A stretch of DNA of 63,861 nucleotides. It comes from Saccoglossus kowalevskii. Its lineage: Eukaryota; Hemichordata; Enteropneusta; Harrimaniidae. Shown in pieces: positions 23,501-26,500 of the stretch. The DNA lies in NCBI RefSeq assembly GCF_000003605.2, contig NW_003126391.1, forward strand, positions 104,531-168,391, read 5' to 3'. Every line of letters starts with the position of its first letter. The first letter of the stretch is position 1. The notes under the pieces were generated by a model that saw nothing but the letters and a program-made list of their open reading frames with translations, had not been told where the DNA came from and did not search any database. The position numbers and the translations under genes were made by a program.

Positions 23501-26500
23501 AAATTTCAAGATCCTGCGAAATGTTCGAAGAATTTATTTTGTCGTTGATTCTTGTGATGAATGAATCAAATAATGAATCTAAAAAAAAATAATGTCACGA
23601 TTTGTAAAGACAAAGAAAATTGCATCGCAATGCACTTAGCAGAAGTTATATGATCCATTTCTCAATATAAATATTTCGTAAAATGACATGTACATATAAA
23701 CATGAATTCTTATAACAGTGATCCAAACAGTATTTTTTTTGTTTTGTTTTTTTGTTCCAGTGTTGTCTCCGCCAATAATTAATTTGCGGCTATGGACTTA
23801 ATTGTGAACAATCAATTGAAAATATTGGAAAATTTAAATTGTTGGTGGTGGAAACAGTTTAGATCACTGTGTATGAGAATTCAAATATAAAATATTCAGT
23901 GGCAATATCAGCAAGAAATCAAACAATGGGTGCTGTATACTTGAGTTGCATGACAAATTACGGTAATTTAGATTAACATGTTTATGTCTTTTTTCTACCC
24001 GAGTCAGAATCAACTACCAACATCAAAACAGAGCTGCTCAATATTTTCGACATAAACTTTTGTTTTTAAACTTTGTTTTTCGTTGTCTAAATGAGTAAAT
24101 CGAGCAGCGTCTATAAATCGTACAACTCAAGTATCAACCGAAAGGCAAACTGTCTATAAAGCATTTATGCTTACCGTGAACAGTGGCAAGGCAATGGGTG
24201 ATTGGGCAAGACACACAGACACATACATGGAGTTAAGTACAACAGGCTGATACAAACAAACGAACAGCACGCAGTGGGTGGGGGGAGAGATGGGGGCAAT
24301 GAAGGTGGAGGTGTCTCTGACTGTGAACATACAATCTGCATTTAATTTAAAAGCCAAGGTTGAACTTGCAGGTATTTGTTCGTATTTTTATGCACGCATA
24401 CAAGTCAAAATGAAAATATTGAACAGGTGGTAGGGAAAAGCGATGCAAGGGATGACAATTTATGGAAATACCGCAAGATAACATCCCTCTAGACTGGTCA
24501 CAGTCACGCGAAAGACACACCACAGGCATATGAGGGGTAAATAGTGATGGGGGTACTGCGATACCATAAACACAGTACACACACAAAAAAGGGGTGAGGA
24601 GAAATGGGACACTAGCATAACATTGGGAAAAGCAAACGTAAAAAGCAGCATTCTTTCAAGAAGCTTGCAAAGTAACTACTGGGCAAAAGAGTCCATCCAA
24701 TGGAGCTCTACATAGACAGAGTAATTTCTACTAAGGCTTTTAAAGATTTTTTTTTTCTATTAAGTTAAAATTTATTGAAATAAAAAGCAATGGGGACTAG
24801 CAAAAGTGCAACTGAAAGAAATGGTAGTTTGACGTATGTACGTTCTTTGCAAGGCGAGACAGACTTACCCTTCAGCCCATACCACTTGGACTTATCAAGC
24901 GTGAAGCGAATACAAGTCTTTATATGTAAAGACACTGAACTGATCATTCAATCAATCGAACAAATCGTACCTTTTCATTGGCCCCCAATCAACTGCTCTA
25001 GTGGAACAGAAATAGAGGTACAAGGAGGTTTCTCTCTATAGGGGGTCAGGTTGTGGGCGGGGGGATCTGGGGGGACAGCATTTGCGAGACAGAAGACATA
25101 TGAGAAGTACGGGACATGTAAAAAGGTCTGAGAAAGCCAGACTCACAGTGTATCAATGACTACCAATCTTCACCCGTCACCACGGCAACCAACTTTGCTG
25201 TTCGTGAAAAATGATTATCAATTGAAGACAGATTGACGAAGAAAGAGAGAAAAATAAAACACTGAAATGGTCACACACGGACACATAGTAAAATAGGTGA
25301 TGTATATCGATGCAATGCTTGTAATTACAGACCACATGCAATTGTTTTTTTTAAATGGAGAACAAACAAAATAAACTTGCAAAGATTGACGAAGTCATTG
25401 ATACACGTTGCCAGTACTGCTAGCTAGACTTTTAAAGAAACTCAAGCGATAGAACATGCTCTAGTCTTTGCACGCAGCAGAACACGCACACACGCAAAGT
25501 TAGAACACATTCTGCGGATGAGCGAGAGACGTAAAACGATTTGGGGGGTAAAAAGGTGGGAGGAGAGAGGAGAGGGAGTTTGGGAAAGTATGGCAGAACA
25601 GTGAACTTACAGTAGGGTATATAATATATAAAGGTTATTCAAAGTCTTACGAAAAATAGTAACATGCACCTCTATTTTGCGCCCCTCAACGATTGTTCCA
25701 TTCAATTTCTCTCTTGCCCTGTCGGCGTCTGAACAAGTTTGGAAAGTTACAAAACCAAAGCCCTGCATGCATGGGGAAAATAATAACAAAACATGCTCAA
25801 CATTAAACTACATGCGAGGTATATAAATACAATAAAAAACACAAGTTATTTGTGATGAAGGACGGTAGACGCTGTCACTAACAGCTCGTCCAGCGGCTCA
25901 AGTGCACGATTTGTTCATGCTTCGTGTGGAACGAACGAACGTACTGCAAATGCATGGATACTTTTTTTTATTTAATTTTACAACAATAACAATGTAGAAT
26001 ACAATAGGCAAAAGCATGCCCCTTTATTGATATTACACTCAGAAAACAATGGTTAAAAAAAAGAAAAGGGGTGAAAGTCCATAGTTTAATAATGAAAACA
26101 TTCAAAACACAAGCAATATATCTAGGTGCAATTTTTAATAAAATCAGCAACTATCAGGGAACCCACAATCTATGCAATTCAAAGGAAATGAGGTCGGAAA
26201 TTTTTTGTATAACATGGAACCTTCCAATTATTTATGGGGGTGGTAGGTATGAAGGGAGGGGATGATATATGGATTTGTTCATAGTCATTAGTTCTTGCAG
26301 CAGCAAACAATGTGGAGGTGAGGGTGGGGGTTTAAAAACGGTCAGCGTTCTTGCTGCAGCCTCATCACCAGAGAATAATATGATAAATGCATGCCGAACC
26401 ATCATTATGCTACTTGTTACGCCATCAATCACAGTTGTGCTTCTACAACAGTATTTCCAAATGTTTCTAAACGACGGCCGAAAAACAAAACTTTGAATTT

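What the first reader, a model, noticed from the sequence alone, without database searches (positions are those of the whole stretch)
25655..25800. UGCAUG abuts both splice sites of the RRM exon: built-in Rbfox autorepression
In the transcript, TGCATG fills intron positions 2-7 after the 93-nt exon and lies within the last 10 nt before it, with a third GCATG about 30 nt upstream. Skipping this 0-0 phase exon removes RNP1 but keeps frame. In vertebrates Fox proteins are known to repress the matching RRM exon, producing an RNA-binding-dead, dominant-negative form. Seeing the sites overlap the splice signals in this genome suggests the feedback loop is ancient, and here with a very direct geometry (U1 and U2AF occlusion).
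Basis: partly seen in the sequence, partly recalled or inferred. Interest (0 to 1): 0.8.

Follow-up and report, generated by a model that had tools for sequence, protein, structure and literature searches.

The report
Rbfox self-silencing exon in acorn worm
In what looks like an acorn worm, the Rbfox splicing-factor gene carries Rbfox binding words laid across both splice sites of one exon of its own RNA-binding domain, the same layout as the self-regulated exon of vertebrate Rbfox genes, so this known feedback switch may be very old.

Summary
On the minus strand a 93-nt exon (25762-25670), which encodes RNP1 and much of the Rbfox RRM, has UGCAUG at +2 to +7 of its donor and at -9 to -4 of its acceptor, plus GCAUG at -34 and -53. 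Chance is about 3e-6 per exon from window frequencies. Skipping keeps the frame and removes RNP1. It is the only Rbfox locus found in the genome; its RRM is 86% identical to human RBFOX1.

The geometry is not new: PMC1877881 reports TGCATG overlapping both splice sites of the matching 93-bp exon in human FOX1, as in FOX2, conserved to Xenopus but not Tetraodon. Fox-driven skipping to a dominant-negative form is established in mammals.

What is added is the species. Mitochondrial code points to a hemichordate, probably Saccoglossus-like, so the arrangement exists outside vertebrates. Descent from a deuterostome ancestor versus convergence could not be tested: no related animal genome or RNA data were available.

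Best reading: an autorepressive cassette exon, new member of a known kind. A second GCAUG cluster lies in a C-terminal-domain intron.

The parts
25670..25762 (-). 93-nt cassette exon of the Rbfox RRM, phase 0-0, encodes RNP1 (GFGFVTF) and the following 24 residues
   Evidence: RRM match to human RBFOX1 structures
25663..25668 (-). UGCAUG at donor +2 to +7
25766..25771 (-). UGCAUG at acceptor -9 to -4 (palindromic TGCATGCA, so the word also reads on the + strand)
25792..25796 (-). GCAUG at -34 to -30
25811..25815 (-).
25802..25806 (-). Predicted branch-point word UUAAU, branch A 25803 at -41, lying between the two upstream GCAUG words
   Evidence: one of two yUnAy matches in 25830-25763 (the other starts at -65); prediction only
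28095..28148 (-). 54-nt RRM exon upstream ([18 protein letters not shown]), strong donor AAG|GTAAGT
28071..28076 (-). UGCAUG at +19 after the 54-nt exon; expected inclusion enhancer by the usual position rule
   Evidence: rule from PMC11701043 passage
28039..28044 (-). UGCAUG at +51 after the 54-nt exon
29148..29273 (-). 126-nt exon with the first part of the RRM (RNP2 LHVSNI)
23127..23181 (-). 55-nt exon after the cassette ([18 protein letters not shown])
22389..22573 (-). 185-nt C-terminal-domain exon
21620..22298 (-). Second cluster: 10 sense GCAUG in the intron between exons 22573-22389 and 21026-; possible second Rbfox-controlled region
   Evidence: 0 of 300 shuffles reach 10 in 700 nt

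Best explanation
This is the autoregulatory cassette exon of an invertebrate Rbfox gene. When Rbfox protein is plentiful in the nucleus it binds the UGCAUG words on its own pre-mRNA. The word inside the donor uses the nucleotides that U1 must pair with, the word next to the AG sits where U2AF acts, and two further GCAUG words lie on either side of the predicted branch point. The 93-nt exon is then skipped, giving an in-frame protein without RNP1 that should not bind RNA and may act as a dominant negative, so the factor limits its own activity. Shown here: the words, their positions, the weak donor, the preserved frame, the loss of RNP1, no second Rbfox locus found. Inferred: binding, skipping in vivo, the competition steps and the dominant-negative activity.
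For: Position and frame. Chance product 2.7e-6 per exon. Most GCATG within 400 nt of the five exons tested: 8 versus 5, 3, 3 and 1. Donor GAG|GTGCAT has the lowest matrix score of five donors (4.3 versus 5.5 to 12.5; matrix values recalled) and the second weakest U1 pairing (-5.4; others -4.1, -8.6, -12.3, -12.5). RRM 76 of 88 identical to human RBFOX1 with no change in RNP1 or RNP2, so UGCAUG binding is expected. Rbfox-level identity only at this locus. The same layout is reported for the matching human FOX1 and FOX2 exon, which is skipped in skeletal muscle (PMC1877881). Rbfox3 variants drive skipping of RBFOX2 exon 6, and the form without it is reported as dominant negative (PMC3126832; PMC11380049). 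TGCATG inserted between competing donors suppressed the intron-proximal one (PMC1877881).
Against: No RNA data, so skipping is unseen. No related genome, so conservation is untested. The doubly flanked pattern occurs 12 times in the genome against 6 for its control. Three GCATG within some 60 nt of the 18.6-kb gene segment is reached by 8 of 300 shuffles. The skipped protein still scores 26.3 bits for RRM_1, over the 20.7 cut-off, though only for profile positions 2-37 of 70. GCATG without the leading T did not suppress a donor in the same assay of PMC1877881, so the two upstream pentamers may be weak. The sites are reported absent in Tetraodon, and the exon 6 event was not present in one set of human tumour samples (PMC10730836).
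Confidence: 0.78

Rival explanations
1. The exon is Rbfox-regulated, but the main outcome is less protein rather than a dominant-negative protein: blocked splice sites lead to cryptic exons or intron retention and nonsense-mediated decay.
For: In mammals Rbfox3 also promotes cryptic exons 5* and 6* of Rbfox2 that feed nonsense-mediated decay (PMC3126832). C. elegans FOX-1 causes intron retention and use of another acceptor in xol-1 (PMC7787662).
Against: The 93-nt exon is phase 0-0 and the skipped form stays open. I did not look for cryptic exons in the two flanking introns.
Confidence: 0.12
2. The overlap is a coincidence of splice-site composition, or the palindromic TGCATGCA is a DNA-level element, with no Rbfox action.
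For: The word pair at exon-like spacing occurs 12 times in the genome against 6 for the control. TGCATG and GCATG are mildly over-represented in the whole window on both strands together.
Against: About 3e-6 per exon, in the Rbfox gene itself, on the exon that has the same layout in vertebrates. Of the 6 of 12 genome matches that I read, this is the one that I recognise as an exon (the others were not searched for protein matches).
Confidence: 0.06
3. The element works as described but arose independently in this lineage: Rbfox genes repeatedly gain UGCAUG on this weakly spliced exon.
For: Reported conserved from human to Xenopus but absent in Tetraodon (PMC1877881), so turnover happens; a 6-nt word is easily gained.
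Against: Same exon, same phase, both splice sites covered in both lineages.
Confidence: 0.35

Closest known systems
Human FOX1 (RBFOX1) exon 10 and FOX2 (RBFOX2) autoregulated exon (exon 6), the 93-nt RRM exon (PMC1877881, PMC3126832)
   Same: 93-nt in-frame exon encoding RNP1; TGCATG overlaps both the 5' and the 3' splice site; further TGCATG in the flanks. Skipping shown in mammals.
   Different: Here in an invertebrate with one Rbfox locus found, so auto- rather than cross-regulation; 3 TGCATG and 8 GCATG within 400 nt of the exon against five conserved TGCATG in human FOX1. Exact human base positions were not compared: figures are not held.
Equivalent alternative exon of the Drosophila Fox homolog (noted in PMC3126832)
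   Same: Same RRM exon reported as alternatively spliced.
   Different: Placement of binding words in the fly was not seen in any passage read.
C. elegans FOX-1 repression of xol-1 (PMC7787662)
   Same: Fox protein bound at several GCAUG/GCACG intronic motifs blocks productive splicing.
   Different: Acts on a target gene, not on its own; intron retention and another acceptor rather than cassette skipping.

Membership tests
Rbfox (Fox-1) family gene | Single RRM of the Fox type with RNP1 KGFGFVTF | tested here: met
   Best PDB matches are RBFOX1/RBFOX2 chains, E 5e-49; 76 of 88 identical
Rbfox (Fox-1) family gene | Fox-1_C domain after the RRM | tested here: met
   PF12414 27.1 bits over cut-off 25 on the joined protein, whose last junction is my guess. 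The six-frame genome search with PF12414 gave no match, but rang in no control either
Rbfox 93-nt autoregulatory RRM exon | 93-nt in-frame exon that holds RNP1 | tested here: met
Rbfox 93-nt autoregulatory RRM exon | UGCAUG overlapping or touching both splice sites | tested here: met
Rbfox 93-nt autoregulatory RRM exon | Exon is skipped in some tissues | not testable with these tools
   no RNA data available
Rbfox 93-nt autoregulatory RRM exon | Skipping depends on Rbfox protein | not testable with these tools
   needs a minigene or knock-down
Rbfox 93-nt autoregulatory RRM exon | Words conserved in relatives | not testable with these tools
   No related animal genome is held (one search says the genome has no relatives here); scans of prokaryote and viral collections returned RRM proteins of other kinds
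Hemichordate (Saccoglossus-type) mitochondrial code, for the host animal | ATA = Ile | tested here: met
   9 aligned ATA of COX1 face 5 Ile, 2 Val, 1 Leu, 1 Met in chain 7o37_a
Hemichordate (Saccoglossus-type) mitochondrial code, for the host animal | AAA = Lys with tRNA-Lys anticodon UUU | tested here: met
   The one AAA of COX1 faces Lys; tRNA with anticodon TTT. Its loop reads CTTTTGA, one base off the CUUUUAA of PMC3121625 Table 3
Hemichordate (Saccoglossus-type) mitochondrial code, for the host animal | AGA = Ser | tested here: inconclusive
   7 AGA in ten gene frames; one falls at a Ser of cytochrome b by recall only

The most novel reading that the evidence does not exclude
The splice-site-covering Rbfox switch is one inherited noncoding element: 6-base words fixed on both splice sites of the same exon since at least the common ancestor of hemichordates and vertebrates. 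It may be part of a wider self-wiring of the gene that also includes the UGCAUG pair after the 54-nt RRM exon and the dense GCAUG cluster in the C-terminal-domain intron.
Probability: 0.5. Interest if true: 0.55.

Novelty: new member of a known kind. Interest (0 to 1): 0.38.

Why it matters
PMC1877881 reported the double overlap as conserved from human to Xenopus but not in Tetraodon. Its presence in a hemichordate would, if inherited, place this splicing feedback loop, with the position of its short binding words, in the deuterostome ancestor or earlier. An animal with one Rbfox gene would let self-regulation be studied without paralogs.

Tried and rejected
Paralog: the second exact hit to the RNP1 DNA pattern (L001) reads as an ELAV/Hu-type protein (the name is my reading, not a search). 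Protein search of the own genome gives five other RRM loci at 27-38% identity (only the best candidates are scored there). The Fox-1_C family search gave nothing, in this genome or the 14 controls, so it says nothing.

Cross-species conservation: genome contigs gave 267 relatives of which the best 80 are listed, all titled bacterial or archaeal, 37-48% identity; viral contigs gave five at 33-42%. These are RRM proteins of other kinds and tell nothing about animals.

Other doubly flanked exons: 12 matches versus 6 control. Six were read, this one included: of the other five, four have an open frame in some phase and one has none. I did not search them for protein matches. Six were not read.

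Cassette exon in the second cluster: a simple splice-site matrix found no pair above threshold in intron 22388-21027. The matrix is recalled and rough: the acceptors of three annotated exons (93-nt, 185-nt and the one at 21026) and the 93-nt donor also fall below that threshold, so this is weak evidence. The first RRM exon was mis-set by one or two bases and corrected.

Echinoderm, chordate and protostome hosts were set aside on mitochondrial code and order. Gene names on the mitochondrial contig other than cox1 and the tRNAs, and the gene orders of other phyla, are recalled; flatworms also read ATA as Ile (recalled).

Papers: passages only of PMC1877881, PMC3126832, PMC5577181, PMC11380049, PMC10730836, PMC2697986, PMC3121625, PMC7787662, PMC8742874, PMC5778076, PMC4876481, PMC11701043, PMC4801060, PMC5840707; outline and passages of PMC10735318 (nothing on Rbfox). 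Damianov and Black 2010 is not held; what I say of it comes from citing papers and recall. In the listings (top rows only where more papers matched) I saw no title or abstract on this element in a hemichordate; one search lists all four papers holding both Saccoglossus and Rbfox, none of which I opened. The library lacks most subscription journals.

Full report
What is there. The minus strand of the window carries an Rbfox gene. The RRM exons are 29273-29148 (126 nt), 28148-28095 (54 nt), 25762-25670 (93 nt) and 23181-23127 (55 nt), followed by C-terminal-domain exons 22573-22389 and 21026 onward. The joined RRM matches human RBFOX1 (PDB 4zka) at E 5e-49, 76 of 88 residues identical, with none of the 12 differences inside RNP1 or RNP2 (motif limits recalled). 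The joined protein has a Fox-1_C domain at 27.1 bits over a cut-off of 25. A search of the 572-Mb assembly finds Rbfox-level identity (segments at 86% and 96%) only at this locus; five other RRM loci are at 27-38%.

The observation. The 93-nt exon begins after ccccaTGCATGcag and ends before gTGCATGtt. UGCAUG fills intron +2 to +7 on one side and -9 to -4 on the other. Skipping joins 28095 to 23181 in frame and removes RNP1. The skipped form still passes the RRM_1 cut-off (26.3 over 20.7 bits), but matches only profile positions 2-37 of 70.

Is it chance? In the window, both strands, 8 of 7186 GT are followed by GCATG and 8 of 3298 YAG have TGCATG in the last 12 nt, a product of 2.7e-6 per exon (both counts include this exon). 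Three GCATG in the last 55 nt of the intron compare with 0.06 expected, though three in some 60-nt stretch of the 18.6-kb gene segment is reached by 8 of 300 shuffles. That segment (20400-39000) has 40 sense GCATG against 19.3 (sd 4.2) in shuffles; its antisense strand has 25. Of five exons, the 93-nt exon has the most GCATG within 400 nt: 8, versus 5, 3, 3 and 1. Against over-reading: the doubly flanked pattern is found 12 times in the genome, this exon included, and 6 times for its reversed control.

How it most likely works. The donor GAG|GUGCAU has the lowest matrix score of five (recalled matrix) and the second weakest U1 pairing, because the binding word replaces the consensus. Rbfox on that word and U1 need the same nucleotides. 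The acceptor word sits where U2AF acts, and the two further GCAUG words lie on either side of the yUnAy match with its branch A at -41 (prediction; the only other match in the 68 nt upstream starts at -65). High Rbfox should therefore cause skipping and produce an RNA-binding-dead form. Binding, skipping and the dominant-negative step are inferred from mammals: Rbfox3 variants repress exon 6 of Rbfox2, and the form without it is reported to have lost RNA binding and to act as a dominant negative (PMC3126832; PMC11380049). In a reporter with competing donors, TGCATG suppressed the intron-proximal donor while GCATG did not (PMC1877881), which favours the two hexamers over the two upstream pentamers.

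What is known. Yeo et al. [quoted passage not shown] that TGCATG overlaps both the 5' and 3' splice sites in an arrangement similar to the autoregulated exon of FOX2; [quoted passage not shown] PMC3126832 adds that an equivalent alternative exon is found in the Drosophila Fox homolog.

Which animal. The assembly's mitochondrial contig is 17,037 bp. In COX1, 9 aligned ATA codons face 5 Ile, 2 Val, 1 Leu and 1 Met in the best PDB chain, and the one AAA faces Lys. A tRNA with anticodon TTT is present. ATA = Ile is an ambulacrarian character (PMC2697986). ATA Ile, AAA Lys and tRNA-Lys UUU together are the Saccoglossus row of PMC3121625 Table 3, while echinoderms read AAA as Asn; the anticodon loop here differs from that row by one base. 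The order nad3-R-nad4L-nad4 is chordate- or hemichordate-like (recalled). I take the animal to be a hemichordate, probably Saccoglossus-like; the species is not established.

What is new and how sure. This looks like a hemichordate member of the vertebrate 93-nt autoregulatory exon class. If inherited, the arrangement dates to the deuterostome ancestor or earlier, beyond the human-Xenopus range of PMC1877881. Descent could not be separated from convergence, since no other animal genome was searchable, and the absence in Tetraodon shows that turnover happens. I put functional autorepression at 0.78 and single descent at about 0.5.

Other features of the gene. UGCAUG at +19 and +51 after the 54-nt exon would favour its inclusion under the usual position rule (rule in PMC11701043). 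The intron after exon 22573-22389 holds 10 sense GCAUG in about 680 nt; 0 of 300 shuffles reach 10 in 700 nt, the largest being 8. Four of them continue as GCAUG[C/U]UG, three as GCAUG[C/U]UGU[C/U]UG. In rat Rbfox2 the C-terminal-domain '40' exon, like the '93' exon, is named as an Rbfox target (PMC5577181); whether this cluster is its counterpart was not tested.

Noticed in passing
21620-22298, minus strand: Dense second cluster of 10 sense GCATG in the intron between C-terminal-domain exons, three of them in the form GCATG[C/T]TGT[C/T]TG; a possible second Rbfox-controlled region, perhaps with UGU-rich partner sites.
   Followed up: partly
28039-28076, minus strand: Two UGCAUG words at +19 and +51 after the 54-nt RRM exon: Rbfox might favour this exon while repressing the next one.
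   Followed up: partly
about 1745-12500, plus strand: Neighbouring gene with a PDZ-like stretch and an FH2-like stretch (RINWEKLPDTQNTIWGQ) in the ORF list; looks like a formin. Names are recalled, no search was made.
   Followed up: no
G000:C4830 (L089, L090): Mitochondrial contig with chordate-like order in which cox1 and nad6 read on the opposite strand to the other protein genes I recognised; ATA reads as Ile and AAA as Lys.
   Followed up: partly
L083-L087: Five IMG/VR viral contigs encode RRM proteins 33-42% identical to the Rbfox RRM.
   Followed up: no
40058-40477: A run of N in the window, seen as X in the ORF list.
   Followed up: no
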